This document shows positions 37,627-52,508 of a stretch of 64,000 nucleotides of DNA, in pieces. The stretch is from Bifidobacterium sp. WK012_4_13. Lineage in GTDB: Bacteria; Actinomycetota; Actinomycetes; Actinomycetales; Bifidobacteriaceae. Position numbers and translations under genes: made by a program. The stretch lies in the NCBI RefSeq assembly GCF_041080835.1, contig NZ_CP129683.1, positions 124,001-188,000 of the forward strand. Reading direction: 5' to 3'. A model generated the notes under the pieces. It searched no databases, had not been told where the DNA came from, and saw only the letters and a program-made list of their open reading frames with translations. Position 1 is the first letter of the stretch, and the number at the start of each line of letters is the position of its first letter.

Positions 37627-38238
37627 CTACGGCTTTCTGAGCATCTTCGCAACCGCGGCGGTGCGGTCCGATACCTGGAGCTTGACGAAGATGCGTGAGA
37701 AATAGGTTTTGACCGTCGTCTCGCTGATGAACAGCGACGATGCGATCTGTCTGTTCGTCCGACCGTCCGCGGCCAGCGCGAGGACCTTCCTTTCCTGCTC
37801 GGACAGTTCCGTGCGCTGCGATGGGTGGAGCTGATTGGCGACTGCCCGTGCGGCCCGAGGTGCGAGGATGGTCTCTCCTGCGACGGTATTGCGAATCGCA
37901 TCCGCAAGAAGCGAGGGTTCGACGTCCTTGAGCAGGTATCCGTTCGCGCCTGCCTCAATCGCAGGAAGAATGTCGCCATCCGTCTCGTAGGTGGTCAGGA
38001 TCAGCACCTTCATGTCTGGGAAGCGCGTCAGAACGGCGTGGGTGACCTCTGGTCCTTCCATGTCCGGCATGCGCAGATCGAGCAGAAGAAGGTCAGGCCG
38101 GTGAGCGATGACCTCGCGTATGGCCTCATGTCCGTTGGATGCCTCGGCCACGATGTTCAGATCGGCATGTCTGCGCAGCATCGCGCTTATTCCTTCGCGC
38201 ACCAATGGATAGTCATCGGCAATGACTATGGAAATCAT
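37627..38238 (-). CDS. NarL/LuxR-family response regulator
   Basis: Two-component response regulator. The receiver domain (1-120) has the acidic pair Asp8-Asp9, phospho-acceptor Asp54 in LLLLDLRMPDM, Thr82/83 and Lys104 (YLLKD). The LuxR-type HTH (140-203) has LSEQERKVLALAADGRTNRQIA and SETTVKTYFSRIF. 203 residues, standard. The start ATG overlaps the kinase stop (ATGA), so kinase and regulator are coupled. The most obvious target is the promoter of its own operon, which begins with the efflux MFS gene; inference. Confidence 0.95.
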   Translation of the reverse strand: MISIVIADDYPLVREGISAMLRRHADLNIVAEASNGHEAIREVIAHRPDLLLLDLRMPDMEGPEVTHAVLTRFPDMKVLILTTYETDGDILPAIEAGANGYLLKDVEPSLLADAIRNTVAGETILAPRAARAVANQLHPSQRTELSEQERKVLALAADGRTNRQIASSLFISETTVKTYFSRIFVKLQVSDRTAAVAKMLRKP

Positions 38239-39704
38239 TTCTTTCCCACTTTCCCGACAGATGTCTGTTCATCGTCGCTAGATTCGTCGTCTGCCCTTCT
38301 GACGGCATGGATCGGAAGGATGACGGTGATGCTTGTTCCCCTGCCATTGTTCGACTCGACTTCGAGACTGCCTCCGAGCTGCTCGGCCCTTCGCCGCATG
38401 TCAATCAGTCCGAAGTGCCTTCCACTGCTGTCCGGACCGTGTTTTCTTCGCATATCCTGCAAGGCGTCATAGTCGAATCCAATGCCGTCGTCGGTCACGA
38501 CCATCCTGAATTCTCCGGACGGGTCTTCCTTCGTCTGACGCTGCATGGATTGCCTGGAAGGGCCGGGTGACGAAACGATCCCAATGCCTATGGTCACGTG
38601 GCTGGCCCTGGAATGCTTATGAATGTTTGCCAGGGATTCCTGCATGATCCTGAGTATCGCCACCTGCTCCTGTGCCTGCAGTTCAGGCAGGCGGTCCTTG
38701 ATGCTCAGCTTCACGTCCATTGCGCATGTGCGTGGATCCGTCGCGCTGCCCTCATCGGATGGCATCCCGACGCAATCCGGGCCATGGGATTTCGCAAAGG
38801 TGTCCACCGTTCTTGTGAGCGCAGTCTGGAGGCCACTGCCTTCAAGGGAAGAGGGGGTCGTGTCCGCAATCAGCCTTCGTGAATCGTCAAGGCCTTGCTG
38901 CGATGCCATCTCGATCATGGAAAGATGCCTGAGCGCCTGCTCGGTGTGTTCACTGTTCACCTCGATCTTCGCCACCCTTGCGAGGGCCAGTATCGAGGAA
39001 AGCGACTGCGCGATGGTGTCGTGCATCTCACCTGCGATGCGTTGCCTTTCCGCAATCATGCCCTCGCTGCGGCTGAGCCTACGGATCTTGACCTGATCCT
39101 TTTCGAGCTCGTGCAGCAGCAAAGCATTGTGCTTGTTCACCATGTCCAGCTTGTCTATCGCGCTTCCGATCATGGCGCTGAAGAAGACCGATATGCATGA
39201 TGAAACGAGCAGGCTGCCCCAGGATTGGGATGTGCGCTGGCCAATGTCAAGTGCCCCTAGGGCGATGATCGCCAGATTCGTGACGATGACGGTTGAAATC
39301 GCATGCCAGTAGTCGAAGACTATGAACAGCTGAGGAATGACGTAGAACTGCGAATAGAATGCATTCCCGTCCATATGCACGGCCAGTGCGGTGCAGATGA
39401 CTGCCATCGCGGCGAAGCACCATGCCCTGGTTCCTCCCTTGGTCCTGTATCGGGCGTTCGGGGATCGGTACCTTGGGCGTGCGATGGGATACAGCATGGT
39501 GGGGATGCATATCAGCAATGACACGAACAGCCTTGGACCAAGGGAAAGCTTCGACACGGATGCGACAAGTATCGCAAGCAGGGGAGTGGCGACCGCAAAG
39601 TAGACATTCCACCGAAGTTGCACGGCCTTGGCTTCCCCCGCCACACCGGTCGAGGCATGCGGGCGCAATCCCCGCCAGCACTTTCGAAGCATGTCTGCAT
39701 GCAT
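38235..39704 (-). CDS. NarL-type sensor histidine kinase
   Basis: Membrane sensor kinase of the HisKA_3 class. The N-terminal half has five or six hydrophobic helices with short loops and no large external domain, so it probably senses a membrane-associated signal. The dimerisation/H-box is ERQRIAGEMHDTIAQSLSSIL (phospho-His near residue 228), followed by a HATPase_c domain with N-box SLANIHKHSRASH, DDGIGFD and GLIDMRRRAEQLGG. The start at ATG 39704 is chosen because GGTGGAG lies 9 bases upstream; ATG 39713 and 39746 are in frame. 489 residues. It lies 44 bases after the MFS stop and overlaps the regulator. Confidence 0.92.
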   Translation of the reverse strand: MHADMLRKCWRGLRPHASTGVAGEAKAVQLRWNVYFAVATPLLAILVASVSKLSLGPRLFVSLLICIPTMLYPIARPRYRSPNARYRTKGGTRAWCFAAMAVICTALAVHMDGNAFYSQFYVIPQLFIVFDYWHAISTVIVTNLAIIALGALDIGQRTSQSWGSLLVSSCISVFFSAMIGSAIDKLDMVNKHNALLLHELEKDQVKIRRLSRSEGMIAERQRIAGEMHDTIAQSLSSILALARVAKIEVNSEHTEQALRHLSMIEMASQQGLDDSRRLIADTTPSSLEGSGLQTALTRTVDTFAKSHGPDCVGMPSDEGSATDPRTCAMDVKLSIKDRLPELQAQEQVAILRIMQESLANIHKHSRASHVTIGIGIVSSPGPSRQSMQRQTKEDPSGEFRMVVTDDGIGFDYDALQDMRRKHGPDSSGRHFGLIDMRRRAEQLGGSLEVESNNGRGTSITVILPIHAVRRADDESSDDEQTSVGKVGKK

Positions 39705-39748
39705 GGTTGCCATCTCCACCTGTCCATCGATCGTTCGCAAGTCCAATC

Positions 39749-41419
39749 CTATTGCCTGTTTCGCTTCCTGTCAGAAGGATACGCGAGTGCCAGGCACAGG
39801 AATATGACTCCGATTGCCGCCATCATCAAAAACACTCGACCGACCGCCATCGAGTATGACTCTCGCACCGTCGCCATGATAGTGTGCTGGACCTGCGTCG
39901 GCATCTTGCTCAATGCCGAGCCGGTCTGAGATTGGGCGGCCGTTCCTGCGGAGTTTGCAATGGCATCCGCCATGGCCTGGGTCACGCCATAGCGTGACAG
40001 GCCGTTATGCAGCCTGTTCGCAAAGACCGTTGAGCTCAGGCTGGAGAACAGTGCCATGCCCAATGCCCCTCCGAAGTTCTTGAACAACTGCGTTATGGCA
40101 GACACTTCGCCATATGACGCGTTCAAGGCCCTGTTGACCATGTCGGTGGATGTGGGACTGAACATGAAGCCGATGCCGGCACCGCTCAGGGCGATGGCGG
40201 TGTCGAGCACGGATTCCTGACTCGGGATCCCCGCATTGAAGCCGCCGACCGCCGAAGTGAGGTAGAGAAAGCCACCGACCGTGCAGAGTCCGGCGATGAT
40301 GAGCACCCTTCTTGACCCGTGCCTTTCGAAGATGCGAGCGCCGAGCTTTGACGCAATCATGAATCCGATGAAGAAATACAGGATAAGCAGGCTCGCATCA
40401 AGCACGTCCTTGGAGAGCGCAAGCTGCCCATACACGCTCAGAAAATACATGATCGGTATGAATGCCACCGATGCGACAAGATTCGCAATCGCAGAAATCG
40501 AGAAACGAAGGTTGGCGAACACCCGCACATTGATTATCGGGTTCGAGCGTCTCAGTTCGAGTGTGACGAACACCGCAAAGAGCAGCGCTGCCGTGACGAA
40601 GCTGGCGATGATGCGAGGATCGGACCATCCGACGTCGCTTCCCTGCTGCAGCGGGAGAATGAGTGCGACCATCGCTGCGGCAGCCAGGAACGCCCCCAGG
40701 CCGTCCACCTTCGAGAAGCCGCTCCTGTGCAGATGCATCGAGTCCCTGGGAACGAACCACTGGATCAGGACCAGGGAGACCATTGCCAGGGGAAGGTTGA
40801 TGAAGAAGACGTAGCGCCATGAGAATGTGATGACATAGGATCCGACGATCGGACCGATGGCCGTCATAGCGCCTGTGATGGCAAAGAAGCTTGCCATCGA
40901 GGAGGCGCGTCTGTCCGTAGGGGAATAGGTGAACAGGATGCCGATTGCGGCCGGGAACATCCACGCCAGGCCGATTCCTTGAACGATGCGCGATATGACC
41001 ATCCATCCAAGTGCCATGCTTCCTGCCGGCGTGAGACCGCATAGCAGGCTGCCGATGCCGAAGCTCACGATGCCGATGAGCATCGCACGCCTGTACCCGA
41101 GCACGTCTGCCAGACGGCCTGACAGTGGGAACATCGCCGCTGCAGCCAGCAGATATGCATTGATGGCCCATTGGATGCCTGATGCCGTCAACCCAATCCC
41201 GGATTGGATCGTCTGCGCTGAAAGGGATATGACTGTCTGATCGATTGAGCTCATCGAAACGGCGATGACGAGTCCCGTCAGAATGATCTGCATTGAATGA
41301 TGCCGATTGTTCGTATCGCTCCCATGCGTTGCCAAGGGACCATTGGCATTGCCGATGCTCTGTGCAGAGGGTGAGGTCATACGACCCGCGCTCGCTGTGC
41401 TCTGACTGTGTATCATCAT
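39749..41419 (-). CDS. DHA2-family drug efflux MFS transporter (EmrB/QacA type)
   Basis: Fourteen-helix drug:proton antiporter family. After a 40-residue polar N-terminus, helix 1 contains VIAVSMSSIDQTVISLSAQTI (motif D1 region), then the motif A loop GRLADVLGYRRAML and motif C (AIGPIVGSY). 556 residues, right for DHA2. ATG 41419 with AAGGA 8 bases upstream; the frame runs open to 41482. Substrate unknown. First gene of an operon with a histidine kinase and response regulator, suggesting the pump is induced by, or supplies the signal for, that system. Confidence 0.9.
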   Translation of the reverse strand: MMIHSQSTASAGRMTSPSAQSIGNANGPLATHGSDTNNRHHSMQIILTGLVIAVSMSSIDQTVISLSAQTIQSGIGLTASGIQWAINAYLLAAAAMFPLSGRLADVLGYRRAMLIGIVSFGIGSLLCGLTPAGSMALGWMVISRIVQGIGLAWMFPAAIGILFTYSPTDRRASSMASFFAITGAMTAIGPIVGSYVITFSWRYVFFINLPLAMVSLVLIQWFVPRDSMHLHRSGFSKVDGLGAFLAAAAMVALILPLQQGSDVGWSDPRIIASFVTAALLFAVFVTLELRRSNPIINVRVFANLRFSISAIANLVASVAFIPIMYFLSVYGQLALSKDVLDASLLILYFFIGFMIASKLGARIFERHGSRRVLIIAGLCTVGGFLYLTSAVGGFNAGIPSQESVLDTAIALSGAGIGFMFSPTSTDMVNRALNASYGEVSAITQLFKNFGGALGMALFSSLSSTVFANRLHNGLSRYGVTQAMADAIANSAGTAAQSQTGSALSKMPTQVQHTIMATVRESYSMAVGRVFLMMAAIGVIFLCLALAYPSDRKRNRQ

Positions 41420-41545
41420 GCTTTCCTTGCGTTCTGTGCGTGGACCCACAGGAGACCGATGAAGGTCTCCAAGGGTGCGCATCCGTGATTACGTTATGAG
41501 GTTAGAAGCATGCCGAACGCACGTGAGTCAGCCATTCGGGCATAA

Positions 41546-41996: not shown

Positions 41997-43175
41997 ATGG
42001 TGAAAACGATCGCAGTCCTTGGCGGAGGCTACGCGGGTCTACGTGTGGTCAAGTGTCTGACCCATAAGAAGGTCGATGCCCGCATCATACTCATCAATAA
42101 AAACAAGTATCACTATGAATCCACGCAATTGCATGAGGTTGCCGTAGGCAATAAGGAGCCTTCGGACATCAGCTTTGACATCCGCGCAGCGTTGCCGGAT
42201 TCCGTGGATCTGATAGTCGATGCCGTCACCTCGATCGATAGGGAAAATCACAGGGTGATGCTTCAGGAATCCGATCCGGTCGAATACGATTACCTGGTCA
42301 ATGCCTTGGGATTCGAAAGCGAGAGCTTCGGCATCAAGGGGGTTGCCGAACATTCCCTTTCCTTCAATGACATCGATTCCGCGCTCGCCGTCCGCGCCCA
42401 CATCGAGCGCACCCTCGCCAGATACGCCACCAGCCATGACCAGAATGACCTGCACATTCTCGTATGCGGTGCAGGCTTCACGGGCATCGAGCTGCTCGGC
42501 GAGCTCATAGAGCGCATTCCGGAGTGGACCAGACAGTATTCACTGCCAGAGGGCGGAATAACCGTGGACTGCATCGAGGCAGGAAAGAAGATTCTACCGA
42601 TGCTTCCCGAGAATCTATCCTCATGGGCCGTCAAATATCTCACCGATCATGGCATAAAAATTCACAGTGGCACGCCGATCACGGAGGTCAGGGCTGGCTC
42701 CGTGCTCAGCAACGATACCGAGTTCCCCGGAAACATCATCATCTGGACCACCGGCGTCCAGGGAAGCCATGTGATCTGTGATTCTGGGTACTCCCAGAAA
42801 CGCAACCGCGTCGTGGTGGAGAACGATTTGAGAGTGAAGGACCATCCAGATGAATTCCTCATCGGTGATGTCGCGGCTGTTCCCGATCCTGATTCCGGCC
42901 GTTTCTATCCCACGACGGCTCAGATAGCGGTTGCACAGGCAGACTGCGCGGCGTCGAACCTTGCCGCCTTGCTCGATGGCCGGCCTACCAGCGACTTCCA
43001 TTTCTCGAGCGTCGGAACGGTCTGCTCGCTTGGACCAGGTTCCGGCGTCGCGGCGATCGATGAGCTTGGCCATTGGAAGTTCAAGGGACATAAGGTGGGC
43101 CTGCTGAAGAGAATCGTCAATGATCGCTCGGTTCTTGAATTGGCTCATGTCAAGGAAATGCTTGCGAGCCGCTGA
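41997..43175 (+). CDS. ndh: Type II NADH dehydrogenase (NDH-2)
   Basis: Single-subunit, non-proton-pumping NADH:quinone oxidoreductase. ATG 41997 follows ACGGAGGG by 3 bases and gives KTIAVLGGGYAGLRVV, the FAD dinucleotide motif; upstream in-frame codons lack support. The second Rossmann motif, for NADH, is VCGAGFTGIELLGELIE near residue 157. The C-terminal FAD segment is FLIGDVAAVPD, followed by the quinone-side PTTAQIAVAQ. 392 residues. It lies 54 bases before cydA on the same strand, so it would reduce quinone for the adjacent cytochrome bd. Other flavin disulfide reductase-like dehydrogenases are less likely given this context. Confidence 0.92.
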   Translation: MVKTIAVLGGGYAGLRVVKCLTHKKVDARIILINKNKYHYESTQLHEVAVGNKEPSDISFDIRAALPDSVDLIVDAVTSIDRENHRVMLQESDPVEYDYLVNALGFESESFGIKGVAEHSLSFNDIDSALAVRAHIERTLARYATSHDQNDLHILVCGAGFTGIELLGELIERIPEWTRQYSLPEGGITVDCIEAGKKILPMLPENLSSWAVKYLTDHGIKIHSGTPITEVRAGSVLSNDTEFPGNIIIWTTGVQGSHVICDSGYSQKRNRVVVENDLRVKDHPDEFLIGDVAAVPDPDSGRFYPTTAQIAVAQADCAASNLAALLDGRPTSDFHFSSVGTVCSLGPGSGVAAIDELGHWKFKGHKVGLLKRIVNDRSVLELAHVKEMLASR

Positions 43176-43229
43176 ATCCGAATCAGTTCGACTCCATAAT
43201 TGAATCCGTGCAAGAAAGGAAGTGCACAC

Positions 43230-44717
43230 GTGACTATCTTGGGTCTATCTCGCTTTCAATTCGCGATGACGACGATATTCCACTTCTTCTATGTGCCATT
43301 GTCCATCGGTCTGGCCCTATGCGTGGCCATTCTCGAGACGATATATGTCTTCAAGAAAGATGAGATCTATCTGAAGATGGCAAAGTTCTGGGGAAAGATA
43401 TTTCTCCTGAGCTTTGCGGTCGGCGTCGTCACCGGCATCATTCAGGAATTCCAGTTCGGCATGAACTGGTCGAACTACTCCCGCTTCATGGGCGACATAT
43501 TCGGCGCGCCGCTCGCCATTGAGGCGTTGCTTGCGTTCTTCCTCGAATCCGTCTTCATCGGTGCTTGGATGTTCACATGGAACCGCTTCAAGCCAGGAAT
43601 CCATGCCATGTTCATGTGGCTCACATGCCTGGGCTCGATACTTTCGGCGATCTGGATTCTTGCAGCGAACAGCTTCATGCAGCATCCGACTGGATTCGAG
43701 ATCGACACCAAGACGGGACACGTTCGTCTCAGGAACTTCTGGGATGTCCTGGGCAATCCACAGCTGTGGCGCCAGTTCCCTCATGTGCTGTTCGCCGCCG
43801 TCATGACCGGTGCCATGGTGATACTGGGCATGGCCGCCTTCGGACTCCTGCACAAGAAGACGCAGGGCAGCGAATCCGACAGGCTCTTCTTCACCAAGTC
43901 GGTGCGCTTCAGCGCAGTCGTGGCACTCATCGGGGCGGTGCTTTCCATCTATGCCGGTGATCTGCAGACCCAATACGTCGTCCAGGACCAGCCGATGAAG
44001 TTTGCCGCGACCGAGGCGCTGTACAAGGATTCCGGAGACCCTGCGTCATGGGCCGTGGTCTCGCTTATCAATGAGAAGGACAAGACAGCCAAGAGCATCG
44101 AGATTCCCTACATGCTCTCTCTGCTGACCTATCACAAGACAAGCGGCTCAGTGAAGGGCATGGATACCATCAACAAGGAGCTCCACCAGAAGTACGATGC
44201 CAAGTTCGGCAAGGACATGAACTATTACGTTCCAGTCAACGCACTGTTCTGGAGCTTCAGGTTCATGGCTGCGGTCGGATTCGCGGTGGCTCTCGTCTCG
44301 GTGCTTGCGCTTTGGGCCACACGGAAGAACAAGAACACCCTATACAAGATGCGGTGGCTGCTCTGGATCATCGGAATCTGCACATTCCTGCCCTTCATCG
44401 GCAACACCGGCGGATGGCTGATAACCGAGCTTGGACGATATCCATGGCTGGTCTATGGCATGCTGACGATAGCAGATGGCGTTTCGCCGACGGCGACCGT
44501 CGGAAGCCTGTTCTTCACCAATCTCGTGTACTTCCTGCTGTTCCTGGTCATCGGTGCGGTGATGATCACCTACTCGCGCCGCGTGCTGTATCAGGGGCCT
44601 GACGGGGACGGCAGAATTCCAACCCGCAAGGGCACCCTGATATCCGATCTCGAAGCCAAGGACTCGAAGGATTCGAAGAAGTCGAAGACCGCCACAAGGA
44701 GGGTGAGCCTCGCATGA
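43230..44717 (+). CDS. cydA: Cytochrome bd ubiquinol oxidase subunit I
   Basis: Haem-bearing subunit of the bd-type terminal oxidase. GTG 43230 with AAAGGAAG upstream gives TILGLSRFQFAMTTIFHFFY. Haem ligands expected by alignment are present: His18 and His185 (QFPHVLFAA) and Met346 (WSFRFMAAVG). Acidic proton-channel residues Glu98 and Glu106 lie in APLAIEALLAFFLES. Nine hydrophobic helices; the Q-loop is short (Gram-positive/actinobacterial type), giving 495 residues. The usual GRQPW quinol-site motif reads GRYPW here (near 402). cydB overlaps by ATGA. Confidence 0.96.
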   Translation: MTILGLSRFQFAMTTIFHFFYVPLSIGLALCVAILETIYVFKKDEIYLKMAKFWGKIFLLSFAVGVVTGIIQEFQFGMNWSNYSRFMGDIFGAPLAIEALLAFFLESVFIGAWMFTWNRFKPGIHAMFMWLTCLGSILSAIWILAANSFMQHPTGFEIDTKTGHVRLRNFWDVLGNPQLWRQFPHVLFAAVMTGAMVILGMAAFGLLHKKTQGSESDRLFFTKSVRFSAVVALIGAVLSIYAGDLQTQYVVQDQPMKFAATEALYKDSGDPASWAVVSLINEKDKTAKSIEIPYMLSLLTYHKTSGSVKGMDTINKELHQKYDAKFGKDMNYYVPVNALFWSFRFMAAVGFAVALVSVLALWATRKNKNTLYKMRWLLWIIGICTFLPFIGNTGGWLITELGRYPWLVYGMLTIADGVSPTATVGSLFFTNLVYFLLFLVIGAVMITYSRRVLYQGPDGDGRIPTRKGTLISDLEAKDSKDSKKSKTATRRVSLA

Positions 44718-45739
44718 GCGTTTTACAGATTCTATGGTTCTTCGTCGTCGCACTGCTGTTCGCAGTGTTTCTGCTGCTTGAAGGCTTCGATTTCGGCGTG
44801 GGGATGGCGACGCGCTTCATGGCCGAGAACGATGGCGAGAGACAGCTCTATCTCAGAGCCATCGGGCCTCATTGGGACGGCAACGAGGTGTGGCTCATCA
44901 CCGCAGGCGGCGCGATGTTCGCGGCGTTCCCGATGTGGTATGCCAGCCTGTTCTCCGGCTACTACATTCCGCTCTTCCTGGTCTTGGTGGCGCTGATTCT
45001 CAGAGGCGTGTCCTTCGAATTCGCGAGCCATGCGATAACGGTTCGGGAGAGAAGCCTGTGGCAGTGGGCGAATTTCGTCGGAAGCCTCTTCGCCCCATTC
45101 TTCCTTGGCATGATGCTCACCAGCCTGATTCAGGGCGTGCCGATGGACGCTCAGGGCAACGCATGGCTTGGTTTCTTCGACATCGTGAACTGGCTTTCGG
45201 TCGTCGGCGGCATCGCGGTCGTATACTTCTGCTTCCTGCACGGCCTGCATTTCCTCAGCCTCAAGCTGGAACACGACCAAGCACGCCACATGCTTAACGC
45301 ATCGAGCAAGCTGTATTGGATCGCATACCCGGCGCTGGTGGCGTTCGTGGTGCTCGCCTTTGTCTTCACCGACTTCTATAGCGTGCATGCGGTCAGTTCA
45401 TGGATCATCACCGTCATCATCCTTGCGGCGACGATATGCGGGCATCGCGCGGCGGAGGAGAGGCGGGGGGTCATCGCCTTCGTCTCATCCGGCGTGACTC
45501 TGGTGGGCATCATCGCCTTCATCTTCAACGGCATGTTCCCACGCGTCATGGTTTCGGCTGGCGGCGTTCACGACCTGCTGGTGAAGGATGCGTCGGCGTC
45601 CCCGCTGACCCTGGGCATCATGACGGGCGTGCTTTGCGTGCTTCTGCCGATCGTTCTGGGATACATCATCTGGAGCTACCGCATTCAGCGCGGCCGGGTG
45701 AGCGCGAAGGCGCTTGAAGACTCGGCGTATGCGGCTTGA
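44714..45739 (+). CDS. cydB: Cytochrome bd ubiquinol oxidase subunit II
   Basis: Second membrane subunit of the bd oxidase. The N-terminal motif LFAVFLLLEGFDFGVGM (residues 15-31), GPHWDGNEVWLITAGGAMFAAFP and VALILRGVSFEF are the family signatures. Eight to nine hydrophobic helices, 341 residues. It begins inside the cydA stop codon. Followed after 95 bases by cydD on the same strand, so cydABDC is arranged as one assembly-plus-enzyme unit. Confidence 0.96.
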   Translation: MSVLQILWFFVVALLFAVFLLLEGFDFGVGMATRFMAENDGERQLYLRAIGPHWDGNEVWLITAGGAMFAAFPMWYASLFSGYYIPLFLVLVALILRGVSFEFASHAITVRERSLWQWANFVGSLFAPFFLGMMLTSLIQGVPMDAQGNAWLGFFDIVNWLSVVGGIAVVYFCFLHGLHFLSLKLEHDQARHMLNASSKLYWIAYPALVAFVVLAFVFTDFYSVHAVSSWIITVIILAATICGHRAAEERRGVIAFVSSGVTLVGIIAFIFNGMFPRVMVSAGGVHDLLVKDASASPLTLGIMTGVLCVLLPIVLGYIIWSYRIQRGRVSAKALEDSAYAA

Positions 45740-45834
45740 AAGTGGGTCGAGCCGGCGCACGCAGGCTCATGCGAACGCTCGTGTTGAGGCCCAGACCAAT
45801 GGACTGAAGTCCAGACTACGGTGAATCGACTGCC

Positions 45835-47676
45835 ATGATTGACAAGAAGCTATTCGAATTCCAAGGGGTCAGCGCCGCGATGGCGTTTCTGGCGCTGCTT
45901 TCCCTTGCCCAGGCCGTGGCGACCGTGGGACAGGCCTATGGACTCACCCTGGCCTTGGTGGAAATCTGGAAGTTGCATGCCCTTGCCTCGATCGTGATTC
46001 CAGCTGGGATATTCGCAGCGGCCTTCGTCGTTCGGCAACTGTGCGAGGTGGCCAAGAAGTCGGTAGCGACGCACTGCGCCGATCGGATCGTCCGCGACCT
46101 TCGGCCACGGGTGCAGGCCAAGCTGTTTGACGCTGGCCCGGCCGCCATGTCCAGGCGGGGGACTGGCGCCACGGTGACGATGCTTCTCGATGGGTTGGAT
46201 CAGACGAAGACCTATGTCCAGACGATAATGCCCAAGATGCTTGATATGACCATCGTTCCCGTGGTGATTCTTGTCGTCGTATGGTACGAGAACTGGCTTG
46301 CTGGCCTGGTCCTGCTCATCGTGTTCCCACTGCTGATGTTCTTCATGGCGATTCTGGGAATCGTCGCGCGCGATAAGTCCGATAGGCAATACGGTGAGTT
46401 CCAGAATCTGAACAACCGTTTCGTGGATACCATTCTTGGCCTGCCGACGCTGAAGATGCTGGGCGTCAGCGATGACTACGAGGATGAGATATATGGAGTG
46501 AGCGAACGTTTCCGCAGAAGGACTATGAGCGTGATCATGGTGGCGATGTCATCGTCATTTGCGCTTGATTTCTTCACCACGCTCAGCATCGCAGTCGTTG
46601 CCGTCTTTCTTGGAGTGAACCTCATCAACGCCTCCGTGGCACTGCTTCCAGCGCTCTTCGTGCTTATCCTGGCGCCTGAATACTTTCTGCCGATTCGGCA
46701 GTTCGGCAATGACTATCACGCAACGCTCAATGGGAAGAACGCTCTTGCGGACATAACGAGCCTTCTTGACGCTCCTGACCCCGCACGCGACGATGACTTC
46801 GAGATGGGCCGTTGGGACAGTGACAGCGATCTGAGCCTTGCGCACGTCGGCTTCTCATATGAGGTCAGGGACGAGGATTCCTCAAGGAACGATGCTCATG
46901 GCAGGGCGAGCGGAAGACGAGGGAGATCGGGCTCCGACGAGGATACAGGTGCACAGACGCCCGAGCATTCCCATGCTCTTGACGACATTTGCCTTGACTT
47001 CCATGGCGTGGAGAGCGTGGCCATCGTCGGGCGCTCAGGATCGGGAAAGTCAAGTCTCATCGATCTGCTTGCGGGCTTCCACGAGCCGCAATCCGGCGTG
47101 ATCGCCATCGATGGGAAGACGACTCCGCATCTCAACATGGCGGCATGGCAGAGACGTATATGGTACATTCCTCAAAAGCCATACATATTCCACGGAACTA
47201 TCGCAGACAACATTCGCTTCTATGCCCCGACCCATGCCCCGACCGCATCTGCGGACCAGATTCAACGGGCCGCCGAGATGGCAGGGCTGGGCGATTGGCT
47301 TGCGACGCTGCGAGATGGGCTGAACACTCCCATCGGCGAGGGCAACCGTGCCATAAGCGGTGGCCAGGCCCAGCGCATAGCCCTGGCTCGCGTGACGCTG
47401 GACAGCAGCAGGGAGATATTGCTTTTCGACGAGCCGACCGCACATCTGGACATAGAGACCGAATACGAGCTGAAACGGACGCTGGTGCAGATCATGCGCG
47501 GACATCTCGTGATTCTCGCCACGCATCGGCTGCACTGGCTTGATTCGGTCGACAGGGTCGTGGTGCTTGACGAGGGCAGGGTCGTGCAGGACGGCGCTCC
47601 GCGGAAGCTGCTCAGACAGCCCGGCGCACTGAGTGCCCTGATTGGTGAGATGGGCGGCGATCATATTGGCGGCTGA
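45835..47676 (+). CDS. cydD: Thiol reductant ABC exporter subunit CydD
   Basis: One half of the heterodimeric ABC exporter that moves glutathione or cysteine outward and is needed to assemble cytochrome bd. An N-terminal membrane domain of six helices (1-310) is followed by an ABC ATPase: Walker A GRSGSGKSSL, Q-loop IPQKPYIFHGTI, signature ISGGQAQRIALARV, Walker B ILLFDEPTAHLD. 613 residues. A charged, low-complexity stretch of about 35 residues (near 345-382, containing GRASGRRGRSGSDED) is inserted in the first strand region of the ATPase before ICLDFHGVES. CydC follows 13 bases later. Confidence 0.93.
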   Translation: MIDKKLFEFQGVSAAMAFLALLSLAQAVATVGQAYGLTLALVEIWKLHALASIVIPAGIFAAAFVVRQLCEVAKKSVATHCADRIVRDLRPRVQAKLFDAGPAAMSRRGTGATVTMLLDGLDQTKTYVQTIMPKMLDMTIVPVVILVVVWYENWLAGLVLLIVFPLLMFFMAILGIVARDKSDRQYGEFQNLNNRFVDTILGLPTLKMLGVSDDYEDEIYGVSERFRRRTMSVIMVAMSSSFALDFFTTLSIAVVAVFLGVNLINASVALLPALFVLILAPEYFLPIRQFGNDYHATLNGKNALADITSLLDAPDPARDDDFEMGRWDSDSDLSLAHVGFSYEVRDEDSSRNDAHGRASGRRGRSGSDEDTGAQTPEHSHALDDICLDFHGVESVAIVGRSGSGKSSLIDLLAGFHEPQSGVIAIDGKTTPHLNMAAWQRRIWYIPQKPYIFHGTIADNIRFYAPTHAPTASADQIQRAAEMAGLGDWLATLRDGLNTPIGEGNRAISGGQAQRIALARVTLDSSREILLFDEPTAHLDIETEYELKRTLVQIMRGHLVILATHRLHWLDSVDRVVVLDEGRVVQDGAPRKLLRQPGALSALIGEMGGDHIGG

Positions 47677-47689
47677 GAGAATTCATGCT

Positions 47690-49594
47690 GTGACTGATGA
47701 CGGTGGGATGCTGCAGGACGACATGGGCGTGGCCACCGCCAGGGAGCACGGTGGCGACGATGCTGGCCATCAATCAGCCAGCTCCACTGAAAATCCCGGA
47801 TTCCATGAGACTCGCTTCGGTGCCCATGGCAAGCGTGGCCTGGGCGATTATCTGAAGGCCTGGCATCACGATCGTTGGTTCTGGCCCTATCTTCGGCAGA
47901 ACCGGTGGCGCCTTGCACTGATCTTTCTTCTAGGGACACTGACCTTCGTGTGCGCTGCGGGTCTGATGTTCACCTCAGGCTATCTGATAAGCCGCTCCGC
48001 CCGCCACCCATACAATGTGCTCATGGTCTACGTGCCCATCGTGCTCACCCGAGCCTTCGGCCTTGGACGCCCGACATTCAGCTACGCCGAACGCATCCTG
48101 AGCCATGACTGGGTGCTTCATGTGGTGTCGAAGCTTCGCGTCGGCCTTTACCGGACCTTGGCCAGGGACGCATCCTTCCTTGATGAGCATGAGCAGACCG
48201 GCAGTGTGCTTGGAGTCCTTGCGGACGATCTCGATCATCTGGAGAATTTCTATCTGCGCACCATCTTTCCGACCATTGTGGCATTCCTGGTATGGGTTCT
48301 GGTCACCATCTCCCTGGGCATTTTCTCATGGCAGACATGCGTGATGATACTGATCATCTTCGCACTCGTCCTGGTGCTTGCCCCGATGGTTTCGCTGCAG
48401 TTCGCGGACATGCACTACCATCGCGAAAAGGCCGCCCGAAGCCGTGAATACACCAAGGTAGCCGAGGAATATCTTGGTCTGGGCGATTGGATCATCACCC
48501 ATCGTTCCCGCGAGTTCGTCGAAACCGGGGAGGCCGAGTTCAGGACGGTTGCCTCGAGCACCCAATCACGCGAGCGCTTCGAGCGGTGGCGTGACTTCCT
48601 CATCCAGCTTGCCTTCGCGGCCGCCGCCGTGGTGCTGATGGTCGCATCCAGCCTGGTGCTGACATCATCCACCACCCTGGCCGATTATGCCGCCGCTGCG
48701 GTGCTCTCCGTATTCCCCCTCATCGACTGCTTCATCGTCGTGGCACAGGCCATAGCAGAGGTGCCGCTGTATGGCGAATCACTTGCGCATCTCAATGGCC
48801 TGAGTGCACGCGTGGACGGGAATGTGCTTCCCGAGTCACCGCAGCAGAGATTGGAAGGGGGGTTGGAATCCATTGACTTCGATCATGTCACCTTCAGATA
48901 TGGCCCCGACGAGACGGTGCTGCTCGACGACTTCTCGCTGCACATCGATGCAGGGGAGAAGGTCGCGCTTCTCGGCCCGAGCGGGGAGGGCAAGACCACG
49001 ATCCTGCAGCTTCTGCTTGGCGACTTGATTCCGACAAGTGGAGAGGTCAGGATAAACGGAATCCCCGTCCGCGCATTGCAGGAGGAGCGTAAGCGTCTCT
49101 TCGGATATCTGAATCAGAGCCCCTTCATATTCCGGGCAAGCATCGGCGGCAACGTTCGACTGGGCAGACCGGAGGCGAGCGACGAGGAAGTCTGGAACGC
49201 CTTGGAAACCGTGGAGTTGGACGGGTTGGTCAGGGACATGCCCCAGGGACTGGACACGGTTGTCGGTGAGAGGGGAAGCACGCTTTCCGGCGGCCAGCGA
49301 GAGCGTCTTGCTCTGGCCAGGATTCTGGTGAAGGACACGCCGATGGTTCTTCTTGACGAACCGACCATCGGATTGGATCCGATAACGGAACGTCACCTGA
49401 TGTCGACGATATTCAAGGCCAATGCACAGCGAACCATGCTTTGGGTGACTCATCATCTCAAGGGTCTGGAACACGCGGATCGGATGATATTCCTTGAGGG
49501 CGGCCATATCGTCATGCAGGGCGATCCCGAGGAGCTCTACCGAAGCGATGAGCGCTTCCGTGCCCTCTACCGCATGGACGTCGCCGAACTGTGA
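47690..49594 (+). CDS. cydC: Thiol reductant ABC exporter subunit CydC
   Basis: Partner of CydD. The membrane domain starts near residue 60 (LALIFLLGTLTFVCAAGLMFTSG split over helix 1), and the CydC family segment FTSGYLISRSA is present. ATPase: Walker A GPSGEGKTTIL, Q-loop LNQSPFIFRASI, signature LSGGQRERLALARI, Walker B MVLLDEPTIGLD. 634 residues, with a hydrophilic N-terminal 50 residues. GTG 47690 is chosen (GAGAG 9 bases upstream, 13 bases after the cydD stop); ATG 47708 is an alternative. It ends at a perfect palindrome overlapping the stop codon. Confidence 0.92.
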   Translation: MTDDGGMLQDDMGVATAREHGGDDAGHQSASSTENPGFHETRFGAHGKRGLGDYLKAWHHDRWFWPYLRQNRWRLALIFLLGTLTFVCAAGLMFTSGYLISRSARHPYNVLMVYVPIVLTRAFGLGRPTFSYAERILSHDWVLHVVSKLRVGLYRTLARDASFLDEHEQTGSVLGVLADDLDHLENFYLRTIFPTIVAFLVWVLVTISLGIFSWQTCVMILIIFALVLVLAPMVSLQFADMHYHREKAARSREYTKVAEEYLGLGDWIITHRSREFVETGEAEFRTVASSTQSRERFERWRDFLIQLAFAAAAVVLMVASSLVLTSSTTLADYAAAAVLSVFPLIDCFIVVAQAIAEVPLYGESLAHLNGLSARVDGNVLPESPQQRLEGGLESIDFDHVTFRYGPDETVLLDDFSLHIDAGEKVALLGPSGEGKTTILQLLLGDLIPTSGEVRINGIPVRALQEERKRLFGYLNQSPFIFRASIGGNVRLGRPEASDEEVWNALETVELDGLVRDMPQGLDTVVGERGSTLSGGQRERLALARILVKDTPMVLLDEPTIGLDPITERHLMSTIFKANAQRTMLWVTHHLKGLEHADRMIFLEGGHIVMQGDPEELYRSDERFRALYRMDVAEL

Positions 49595-49680: not shown

Positions 49681-50643
49681 CTATATGCCTCTGCTGAAGC
49701 GTTCAAGCATCGATTCAAGCAGTTCCTCGATGCCATCGGGGATGTCCATGCTGTGCAGCAGCCGTTCAGCCTCGGCGATGTGCTCCCTTGCGATCTGTTT
49801 GCTCCTGCGAATCGCTTCGGGATTGGAATCGAGAAAGTCCAGCACTGCGGAGACGTCGTTGCTCTGCAGCAGTCCCGAGAATTCAGGGCTCATGTCTCGC
49901 GCGAGCAGCACCGGCAGCGTATAGATGCCATCGCCTATGTCTTCGAGCTTGGGCTTGCCGGTGTCATCCGCAAGATTGAAATCCTCGATGTCGTCGGCGA
50001 TCTGGAAGGCAATGCCCAGGTGCATGCCAAAGCCTGCTGCGGCTCGAAGCAGTGCCTCATCCGGTTTGTTTCCGGTGCTCAGACGCAGCCCAGTGACGCA
50101 TGAGTGCTCGAACAACGCTGCGGTCTTGCCACGTATCGCCTCGATGTAGTGCTCGACCGTCGTGGTGACCCGATGCCTCGCCGATTCCTGGCTGAGCTCA
50201 CCGTTCAGGATTCTGCCCAGAATGGAGGCCTGCTCGTGCATGAAATCCAGGTCGGGAGCTATTTCGGACATGATCTCTATATACCTCGATAGAATCAGGT
50301 CGCCGAGATAGATTGCGGCCTTGTTGCCGACGATCGTCTGCACGGTGGGACTGTTGCGACGAATCGCCGCACCATCGACGACGTCATCATGGACCAAGGT
50401 CGCCAGATGAAGCATCTCTATGCATGAGGCAGCCGTGACGGTCGACTCGTCCAGTCGGACTGCCTCGCCATCGTTCACACGTGCGAAGAGAATGACGAGA
50501 GAGGCCCTCAGCATCTTGCCGTGGTTATCAAGAAGCATCCGGTATTGATCGGCATATGGTTCAAGCGCGGCCTGCTCAGCATGGAGCCGACCCTTGACCC
50601 GCTGCAAGTCTCCCGCGAGTATAACTTCCTGCTTCAATGCCAT
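49681..50643 (-). CDS. Polyprenyl diphosphate synthase
   Basis: Trans-type isoprenyl chain elongase. First Asp-rich motif LVHDDVVDGAAIRR near residue 82, second QIADDIEDFNL near 213, with GKMLRASLVILFA (IPP-binding Arg region) upstream and KTAALFEHSC between. 320 residues, like heptaprenyl/octaprenyl synthases that make quinone tails. The residues ahead of the first motif (MLHLATL) lack bulky aromatics, compatible with a long product. ATG 50643. Convergent with cydC. It may supply the quinone tail for NDH-2 and bd oxidase, or another polyprenol; inference from location only. Confidence 0.9.
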   Translation of the reverse strand: MALKQEVILAGDLQRVKGRLHAEQAALEPYADQYRMLLDNHGKMLRASLVILFARVNDGEAVRLDESTVTAASCIEMLHLATLVHDDVVDGAAIRRNSPTVQTIVGNKAAIYLGDLILSRYIEIMSEIAPDLDFMHEQASILGRILNGELSQESARHRVTTTVEHYIEAIRGKTAALFEHSCVTGLRLSTGNKPDEALLRAAAGFGMHLGIAFQIADDIEDFNLADDTGKPKLEDIGDGIYTLPVLLARDMSPEFSGLLQSNDVSAVLDFLDSNPEAIRRSKQIAREHIAEAERLLHSMDIPDGIEELLESMLERFSRGI

Positions 50644-50823: not shown

Positions 50824-52299
50824 TCAATGCTGGATGCTCTTCGGAAGTGCGAAGACAAGCAGGCATGCGATGACGGCGAGCATGGCGCTTGCGAGCATCG
50901 CGACAGAAGCCGCATGCGTGAAGGTGTCTGCCAGAATCTGTGAAGTGATGCGTCGGTGTGGGAAGTCAAGAGAGCCGAACAGTATCGAACCGATTATCGC
51001 GATTCCAGACGCGGCGCCCACGCGCTGGGCGGTTCCGACTATTCCAGACGCCGCACCTGCATCCGCGCGGTCGACGGTGGCTACGATGAAATCGACATTG
51101 GGTGCGATGAAGAATCCTGAACCTATCCCCGCAATCAGCAGAGGCAGCAGAAGGACCCAGTTATTCAGTTCGTCGGTGGGGAGCAGGGAAAGCATCAGCC
51201 ATACAGAGAGCAGGCCGAAGGCGACCATTCCCGTTCCTATGCTCAGGACCTTCCTGCCCAGTCCATATGCAAGACGGTGGCTTTGCGAGGCCCCGATGAT
51301 CGAACCAATGGCGAAGGGCGCCGACATGTAGCCCGTCTCGAGCGCCGAATGTCCAAGGCCGGACTGCCAGAGAAGCGAAAGCGTAAAGAAAATGCTGGTG
51401 AATGCGGCGAAGTATACCAAGGCGAGAATGATTCCTCCGGTGAACTGCGCCCGGACGAAAAGCTTGGGTGGAATCAGCGGAACGGCTCCAAGACGTGCAA
51501 GCCGCATCTGCCACAATCCGAATGCGACGAGCAGCAGCACGCCTGCGCACATCATGAGCCATGTCCACAGCGGCCAGCCCGAGCCTTCTCCCTGAATCAG
51601 AGGGACCAGAATGGCGCTGAGCGAACATGTCATCAGGATGAGACCGACGACGTCCGCCTTGCCATGCGTTCTGCCTGAGACAGCGGAGGGCAGCGTAATG
51701 ATGCTTCCTATGACCGCGATGATGCCGAAGGGCAGATTTACATAGAATACAGAACGCCATCCCTCGCTCTGGCCGAACCATTCGATGAGGAATCCTCCGA
51801 GAACCGGTCCGATTGCCGTTGAGAAGCCGATGACCGCCCCCATGACGGAGAACGCCCTGCTGCGGGTCTTCCTGACGAAAAGAAGCTGAATCAGCGCCGT
51901 CACCGCTGGATAGAAGACGCCTCCGAAAAGACCCTGAACTATTCTGGCGCATACCAGGCTGAGCGAACTGTCCGATATGGCACACCACAGGCTGGCGAGC
52001 GTGAATCCTGCCAGACCTATCGTGAACACCCACTTATGCCCGAACCTGTCTCCCAGCCTTCCCGCTGGAATCAGGGCGAGTCCGAAAGCCAGTGCGTATC
52101 CGGAAACCACCCACGACAGCACCGATTCGGATGCATGAAGATTGACGCGAATCGTCGGCAGTGCGACGTTGACGATCGTCGTGTCCAGCATTGACATCGC
52201 GACGCCCAGCAAGAGAACCGTCAATGACGGCCAGTTCCTGGAAAGACGCTCGGATGCCATGCTCTTGTTGGGAATTGGCCTGCTGCCATGCTGGGACAT
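50824..52299 (-). CDS. DHA2-family MFS transporter (EmrB/QacA type)
   Basis: Drug:proton antiporter family. LLLGVAMSMLDTTIVNVALP in helix 1 (motif D1), GRLGDRFGHKWVF (motif A), and VLGGFLIEWFGQSEGWR (motif C and the DHA2 loop). About 14 helices in 491 residues. ATG 52299 is chosen (GAAGAAT upstream on the minus strand); the open frame to 52485 reads through a palindromic intergenic region and is not credible. ATG 52260 is also possible. Substrate unknown. It lies downstream of an SDR gene on the same strand, separated by 209 bases with a 19-bp inverted repeat. Confidence 0.88.
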   Translation of the reverse strand: MSQHGSRPIPNKSMASERLSRNWPSLTVLLLGVAMSMLDTTIVNVALPTIRVNLHASESVLSWVVSGYALAFGLALIPAGRLGDRFGHKWVFTIGLAGFTLASLWCAISDSSLSLVCARIVQGLFGGVFYPAVTALIQLLFVRKTRSRAFSVMGAVIGFSTAIGPVLGGFLIEWFGQSEGWRSVFYVNLPFGIIAVIGSIITLPSAVSGRTHGKADVVGLILMTCSLSAILVPLIQGEGSGWPLWTWLMMCAGVLLLVAFGLWQMRLARLGAVPLIPPKLFVRAQFTGGIILALVYFAAFTSIFFTLSLLWQSGLGHSALETGYMSAPFAIGSIIGASQSHRLAYGLGRKVLSIGTGMVAFGLLSVWLMLSLLPTDELNNWVLLLPLLIAGIGSGFFIAPNVDFIVATVDRADAGAASGIVGTAQRVGAASGIAIIGSILFGSLDFPHRRITSQILADTFTHAASVAMLASAMLAVIACLLVFALPKSIQH

Positions 52300-52392
52300 T
52301 GATTCTTCGTTTCTCTCGTCGTGTCGGTGATGATGCCTGAATGAACCTTGCAGGCGTTGGTATTCTATGCGCTTTCGATCGATTGCGCCTAC

Positions 52393-52465
52393 GGCATCCG
52401 AATGGCCCACGCCATGCTCCGCCTGCGATTCATGGCGAATGCGTGACGTGGGCCATTCGGATGCC
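52393..52465. repeat. 19-bp perfect inverted repeat between SDR and MFS genes
   Basis: Arms 52393-52411 and 52447-52465 are exact reverse complements (core CCGAATGGCCCACG / CGTGGGCCATTCGG). Inside, CCATG (52412-52416) and CATGG (52431-52435) can extend the stem after an asymmetric bulge. No T run follows on either strand. Confidence 0.8.
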
Positions 52466-52508
52466 TGCGTCGAAGATGCCTTCATGCAGGCGAGAGGCCT
52501 TGGCCTGC

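What the first reader, a model, noticed from the sequence alone, without database searches (positions are those of the whole stretch)
41997..49594. Complete NDH-2 and cytochrome bd module in a bifidobacterial genome
ndh, cydA, cydB, cydD and cydC are contiguous and co-oriented, with all expected haem-ligand and ATPase motifs. Most bifidobacteria are fermentative and lack these genes; bee-gut species such as B. asteroides are the known exception. This sets host and lifestyle expectations (microoxic gut) and offers oxygen scavenging plus NADH reoxidation outside the bifid shunt.
Basis: partly seen in the sequence, partly recalled or inferred. Interest (0 to 1): 0.7.

Follow-up and report, generated by a model that had tools for sequence, protein, structure and literature searches.

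The report
Borrowed lactic-acid-bacteria respiration in Bifidobacterium
A water-kefir Bifidobacterium carries an intact oxygen-using respiratory gene set that looks to have come from lactic acid bacteria, and it probably works only when neighbours supply haem and a vitamin-K precursor.

Summary
In detail: ndh, cydA, cydB, cydD and cydC are contiguous, co-oriented and intact at 41997-49594, with haem ligands and ATPase motifs in place. The interpretation needs three changes. (2) The module is not an ancestral actinobacterial trait. Bifidobacterial CydA forms one clade nested in Lactobacillales; joining it with Actinomycetia, or keeping Lactobacillales a clade without it, is rejected; CydB/D/C agree. 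A convergent polyprenyl diphosphate synthase (49681-50643, minus) belongs to it: same place in 15 of 23 Lactobacillales loci, and in the genus present in 24 of 24 cydA-positive and 0 of 3 cydA-negative genomes. This contradicts published accounts of ancestral respiration later lost. (3) No ferrochelatase, MenD or futalosine enzyme was found, but a MenA was. Best reading: a lactobacillus-type conditional chain (NADH, NDH-2, demethylmenaquinone, cytochrome bd, O2) needing outside haem and DHNA or quinone. A new member of a known kind; the origin and cofactor dependence are the useful results.

The parts
41997..43175 (+). ndh: type-II NADH:quinone oxidoreductase (NDH-2), 392 aa
   Evidence: two GxGxxG motifs; TTAQI quinone-site stretch kept
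43230..44717 (+). cydA: cytochrome bd subunit I, 495 aa, GTG start, haem ligands present
   Evidence: only PF01654 match in the genome
44714..45739 (+). cydB: cytochrome bd subunit II, 341 aa
   Evidence: (TIGR00203 over cut-off)
45835..47676 (+). cydD: ABC exporter subunit for bd assembly, 613 aa
   Evidence: TIGR02857 over cut-off; motifs
47642..49594 (+). cydC: ABC exporter subunit for bd assembly; frame 650 aa, true start probably downstream of 47642
   Evidence: TIGR02868 over cut-off, match from residue 78; motifs
49681..50643 (-). Trans-polyprenyl diphosphate synthase, convergent with cydC; predicted to make the side chain of the respiratory quinone
   Evidence: same place and orientation in 15 of 23 Lactobacillales loci; in the genus found in 24 of 24 cydA-positive and 0 of 3 cydA-negative genomes

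Best explanation
This is a complete, probably functional, cofactor-scavenging aerobic respiratory cassette of the lactic-acid-bacteria type. Shown by sequence: intact NDH-2, CydA/B with the haem ligands, CydD/C, a linked polyprenyl diphosphate synthase, and a MenA elsewhere on the chromosome; no ferrochelatase, MenD or futalosine-pathway enzyme detected. Shown by phylogeny: the cyd genes of Bifidobacterium branch within Lactobacillales, consistent with one acquisition by the lineage sampled here; Galliscardovia has a separately acquired set. Inferred: MenA joins a side chain made by the linked synthase to DHNA taken from neighbours, giving demethylmenaquinone; NDH-2 passes electrons from NADH to it; CydAB, loaded with scavenged haem and matured with CydDC, passes them to O2. 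This removes O2, reoxidises NADH outside the bifid shunt and builds some proton-motive force (NDH-2 does not pump; bd contributes by charge separation). It would be active when haem and DHNA or a menaquinone are available, as in a mixed yeast and LAB fermentation.
For: Intact genes and ligands. CydA tree of 85 rows: 26 bifidobacterial rows one clade 100/99*, inside Lactobacillales (98/92* with 3 Companilactobacillus and 1 Apilactobacillus rows), 17 Actinomycetia rows apart 100/100*. AU tests: bifidobacteria + Actinomycetia as one clade rejected, p 6.7e-7; Lactobacillales + Galliscardovia as one clade without bifidobacteria rejected, p 5.7e-4; bifidobacteria + Galliscardovia as one clade rejected, p 1.2e-79. 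A CydB+D+C tree agrees. Polyprenyl synthase linked or co-occurring. MenA match in the own genome 189.6 bits against cut-off 102.15. MenD over cut-off 0 of 27; futalosine enzymes 0 of 27; no ferrochelatase match in the own genome. Precedent: lactobacilli with cydABCD and only late men genes gain biomass when given haem and menaquinone, and an L. lactis menG knockout still respires (PMC8303990, abstract and passages).
Against: No expression or oxygen-uptake data for this strain were seen; its growth in air was reported as weak. Bee relatives with cyd genes (B. coryneforme, B. indicum, B. actinocoloniiforme, B. bohemicum) showed no O2 uptake in PMC3447821. Absence of genes rests on profile searches; a diverged haem route would be missed. 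Two cydA-positive genomes of the genus (G002, G013) have only weak MenA matches (E 1.1e-13 and 6.3e-6), as has Galliscardovia-like G154 (1.5e-9), so native MenA is not a fixed partner of cyd. A weak Ubie_methyltran match in the own genome (23.7 bits, cut-off 20.1) leaves methylation of the quinone open. The Lactobacillales rows were recruited by similarity to this CydA, and Apilactobacillus is a long branch, so the donor genus is not fixed.
Confidence: 0.75

Rival explanations
1. Respiration is ancestral in bifidobacteria (inherited from an actinobacterial ancestor) and was lost in mammalian species, as proposed for B. asteroides.
For: Published in PMC3447821 and, from matching GC content, in PMC4449606; the GC content of the module here also equals that of the window (0.576 against 0.574).
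Against: CydA and CydB/D/C nest in Lactobacillales; joining bifidobacteria with Actinomycetia is rejected. GC can equalise after an old transfer. A single old gain inside the family followed by losses remains possible.
Confidence: 0.05
2. The strain is self-sufficient: it makes its own haem and menaquinone, so the chain is constitutively active.
For: menA is present; 14 of 27 genomes of the genus have an intact ferrochelatase; PMC3447821 reports menF, menC, menE and menA in B. asteroides PRL2011.
Against: No ferrochelatase match in the own genome, no MenD over cut-off, no futalosine enzymes, in an assembly 99.57% complete.
Confidence: 0.06
3. The module is kept mainly for oxygen removal, or is nearly silent, with little energy gain.
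For: The type strain grows only weakly in air; PRL2011 O2 uptake was low and bee relatives with cyd showed none.
Against: cydA is full-length without stops in 24 of 27 genomes of the genus and its ligands are conserved here; the other strains tested in PMC11500810 grew well in air.
Confidence: 0.14

Closest known systems
Lactobacillales cofactor-dependent respiration (cydABCD, NDH-2, MenA, polyprenyl synthase; haem and quinone auxotrophic)
   Same: Nearest CydA relatives outside bifidobacteria (53-64% identity for the Lactobacillales rows); cydA-B-D-C order and, in 15 of 23 loci, a convergent polyprenyl synthase; no ferrochelatase or MenD found here.
   Different: Host is an actinobacterium; menA is not in the cluster but about 1.9 Mb away (L125) and its first-listed plasmid-collection matches are actinobacterial; ndh lies directly upstream, as in only 2 of 23 Lactobacillales loci (L016, L064).
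Bifidobacterium asteroides PRL2011 respiratory genes (PMC3447821)
   Same: cydABCD in the same genus name; oxygen uptake measured there; homologous ndh, cyd and polyprenyl synthase in the B. asteroides locus L004.
   Different: Gene order is ndh-cydB-D-C-A in L003, L004 and L205, and cydB-D-C-A by locus tag in PRL2011; many genomes of the genus, including G010 that shares L004's contig length, have a ferrochelatase, this one none.
Actinomycetia cytochrome bd (7nkz, 7d5i; mycobacterial origin recalled)
   Same: Best solved structures by sequence, same ligands.
   Different: Phylogenetically separate; none of the five same-order loci examined (L196-L200) shows an ndh or polyprenyl synthase match near cyd.

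Membership tests
Cytochrome bd quinol oxidase (CydAB) | Subunits I and II with haem b558, b595 and d ligands | tested here: met
   PF01654/PF02322; H18, E98, E106, H185, M346, E400 (E. coli equivalence recalled)
Cytochrome bd quinol oxidase (CydAB) | bd haem spectrum and cyanide-resistant quinol oxidase activity | not testable with these tools
   needs membranes
CydDC exporter | Two half-ABC transporters above family cut-offs with intact ATPase motifs | tested here: met
   TIGR02857, TIGR02868 over cut-off; motifs
NDH-2 | Two dinucleotide folds, similarity to solved NDH-2 | tested here: met
NDH-2 | AQxAxQ quinone-site motif (recalled) | tested here: inconclusive
   AQIAVA here: first Q kept, second Q replaced; the second Q is absent in the bifidobacterial rows and present in only 3 of 13 other rows (L014, L016, L046)
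LAB-type cofactor-dependent respiration | cyd genes descended from Lactobacillales | tested here: met
LAB-type cofactor-dependent respiration | MenA present, DHNA synthesis absent | tested here: met
   (MenB, MenC, MenE, MenF and MenH were not searched)
LAB-type cofactor-dependent respiration | No complete haem synthesis | tested here: met
   no PF00762 match in the own genome; other haem genes not searched
LAB-type cofactor-dependent respiration | Respiration switched on by added haem and quinone precursor | not testable with these tools
   experiment proposed
Actinobacterial (vertically inherited) bd oxidase | CydA groups with Actinomycetia | tested here: not met
   rejected, p-AU 6.7e-7

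The most novel reading that the evidence does not exclude
DHNA, the classic 'bifidogenic growth stimulator', is a vitamin-like precursor for the whole family: nearly all Bifidobacteriaceae keep MenA but few can make DHNA, so they prenylate scavenged DHNA to demethylmenaquinone and use it for electron disposal even without an oxidase. The lactobacillus-derived bd cassette is an add-on that plugged into this standing quinone-scavenging habit.
Probability: 0.35. Interest if true: 0.75.

Novelty: new member of a known kind. Interest (0 to 1): 0.45.

Why it matters
Two published accounts treat bifidobacterial respiration as an ancestral trait lost in other species; the trees here say the cyd genes were borrowed from lactic acid bacteria, at least twice in the family if Galliscardovia is counted. 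The predicted need for outside haem and DHNA gives a testable reason why earlier oxygen-uptake measurements in cyd-carrying bifidobacteria were low or nil, and links cross-feeding of quinones in food and gut to oxygen tolerance in a genus used as probiotics.

Tried and rejected
Gut or insect host inference: rejected on the identity of the assembly. Recent plasmid-borne transfer: comparing the 7.6 kb module with the plasmid collection gave one 107-base match in one Tsukamurella record. A conserved operator upstream of ndh: the upstream regions of the two closest relatives do not align convincingly, so no claim is made. A defective quinone site in NDH-2: not supported, because the second Q of the recalled AQxAxQ motif is missing in the other bifidobacterial rows and in 10 of 13 other rows too. 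Composition as a sign of transfer: module GC equals window GC, uninformative.

Full report
Observation. Five co-oriented genes run from 41997 to 49594: ndh, cydA, cydB, cydD, cydC. All are open, and family matches are strong: CydA and CydB over Pfam cut-offs, CydB, CydD and CydC over NCBIfam cut-offs. NDH-2 identity rests on the best solved relatives, as no NCBIfam model reached its cut-off for it. The haem ligands and the Q-loop lysine and glutamate are present (E. coli numbering recalled), as are the ATPase motifs. The cydC frame opens at a TTG inside cydD, but the family match starts 77 residues later, so its start is uncertain.

Extent. Convergent with cydC lies a trans-polyprenyl diphosphate synthase (49681-50643, minus). 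I count it in the module. In 15 of 23 Lactobacillales cyd loci a homologue lies downstream on the opposite strand; in 8 none was found in the stretch held, two of these (L008, L013) being cut by a contig end. In the genus, a synthase 48.6% or more identical to this one occurs in all 24 cydA-positive genomes (L214-L237), on the same contig within about 11 kb of cydA in 22; in G026 it is on another contig and in G001 about 620 kb away. The 3 cydA-negative genomes have only distant synthases, 23-29% identical (G016 two genes, G023 and G024 one each).

Organism. The assembly is 2,470,594 bp in 2 contigs, the larger 2,427,799 bp, leaving 42,795 bp. Table 1 of PMC11500810 gives B. fermentum WK012_4_13T 2.47 Mbp in 2 contigs with a 42,795 bp plasmid (abstract and passages seen). 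It was isolated from water kefir; the authors call the novel species aerotolerant, catalase- and oxidase-negative, and the strains tested grew well in air except this type strain, which grew weakly. A microoxic gut is therefore not what these genes indicate here.

Distribution. cydA occurs in 24 of 27 genomes of the genus and 50 of 189 of the family, in 3 of 16 genera (one of the 50, G135, is a fragment). PMC5540593 (passage seen) reported the four cyd genes in 11 Bifidobacteriaceae genomes, so presence itself is known. Genus and family are the tool's group codes.

Origin. A CydA tree of 85 rows, chosen by hand from the loci held, puts 26 bifidobacterial rows in one clade (100/99*), inside Lactobacillales (98/92*) with Companilactobacillus and Apilactobacillus, the latter a long branch; 17 Actinomycetia rows (12 of the 30 loci and 5 same-order loci) form a separate clade (100/100*). 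AU tests reject bifidobacteria + Actinomycetia (p 6.7e-7), Lactobacillales alone as a clade (p 6.8e-5), Lactobacillales + Galliscardovia as a clade without bifidobacteria (p 5.7e-4) and bifidobacteria + Galliscardovia (p 1.2e-79). The taxonomic groups were fixed before the tree, but which unions to test was decided after seeing it, and the Lactobacillales rows were recruited by similarity to this CydA. A quick tree of joined CydB, CydD and CydC (66 rows, LG+G4, only 5 Actinomycetia, composition and long-branch warnings) gives the same nesting. Galliscardovia ingluviei carries a separate LAB-type module, sister to Streptococcus didelphis (100/99* and 100*). This disagrees with PMC3447821 (abstract and passages) and PMC4449606 (passages), which infer ancestral presence and loss, the latter from GC content. 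Module GC equals window GC here too, which an old, ameliorated transfer would also give. My searches (listings, plus passages of five of the listed papers) showed no published claim of such a transfer, but the library lacks most subscription papers.

Cofactors. No ferrochelatase match in the own genome; 14 of 27 in the genus have an intact one and one more (G017) a broken piece. MenD is over cut-off in 0 of 27 (all 27 have weaker matches, presumably other TPP enzymes) and in 6 of 189 of the family, two of which (G122, G130) carry cydA. Futalosine-pathway enzymes: 0 of 27. A methyltransferase match is weak (23.7 bits). MenA is present between genes that look by eye like lysS and gpmA; it is in that place in 9 of the 12 other stretches compared, the exceptions being the second locus of G021 and the loci of G002 and G013. 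G002 and G013 have only weak MenA matches genome-wide, although both carry cydA. The MenA's first-listed plasmid-collection matches are actinobacterial, whereas those of the polyprenyl synthase and NDH-2 are led by Enterococcus and by Staphylococcus and Listeria; that collection is not a fair sample. So a native MenA appears to serve a borrowed chain. PRL2011 was reported to have menF, menC, menE and menA; of the classic pathway I searched only menA/UbiA, menD and the menG-like family.

Mechanism. From established knowledge of these enzymes: NDH-2 oxidises NADH without pumping; bd reduces O2 to water with charge separation. The quinone is most likely demethylmenaquinone made by MenA from scavenged DHNA (inference). 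Lactobacilli are the precedent: cydABCD with only late men genes, more biomass in air on added haem and menaquinone, and respiratory growth without menG in L. lactis (PMC8303990, abstract and passages); L. plantarum, a quinone auxotroph, uses exogenous DHNA for extracellular electron transfer (PMC10746273, passages). Water kefir, with yeasts and other bacteria, could supply both (inference).

Results that do not fit neatly. In PMC3447821 four bee species with cyd genes took up no O2. A missing ferrochelatase cannot explain all of them: G001, whose size matches my recollection of B. actinocoloniiforme, has an intact one. Lactococcus lactis also rings for ferrochelatase in the control although LAB do not make haem (PMC8303990), so the gene is not sufficient.

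Verdict. A real, intact module of a known kind in a newly described species; what is new is its inferred origin, its sixth gene and its predicted dependence on others for haem and quinone.

Noticed in passing
G000:C1:2089235-2089861 (L125:7990-9042 +) and 186 of 189 family genomes: MenA (TIGR00751) matches in 186 of 189 Bifidobacteriaceae genomes (176 over cut-off) although MenD is over cut-off in 6 and cydA is present in 50: a nearly family-wide DHNA prenyltransferase without DHNA synthesis. The listings I saw (all rows; 53, 73: 20 of 103 and 20 of 45) did not show this in print.
   Followed up: partly
CydA rows L082, L087, L089 (G017, G014, G015) against loci L205, L207, L208: CydB/D/C of G014 and G017 group with the B. 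asteroides-type G011 (100*), but their CydA groups with the clade of this window (93/83, not starred): cydA and the other cyd genes may have different histories. G011 itself has the order ndh-cydB-D-C-A.
   Followed up: partly
L021:10001-19350: Galliscardovia ingluviei carries a separately acquired cyd module with the polyprenyl synthase and ndh downstream, an arrangement also seen in several Lactobacillales loci.
   Followed up: partly
L131:7593-9526: Two adjacent menA-like genes in the G011 genome, both over the TIGR00751 cut-off; 15 of 27 genomes of the genus show two UbiA-family matches.
   Followed up: no
window 37627-41482 and 50824-52485: A response regulator, a HisKA_3-type histidine kinase and two MFS exporters flank the module (the regulator was not family-searched); matches to kinase, regulator and one exporter also lie near the polyprenyl synthase in G021 (L247).
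   Followed up: no
L189, L190, L195 upstream of cydA: Three genomes of another genus of the family (G127, G122, G133; group g5) carry two tandem ndh genes ahead of cydA.
   Followed up: no
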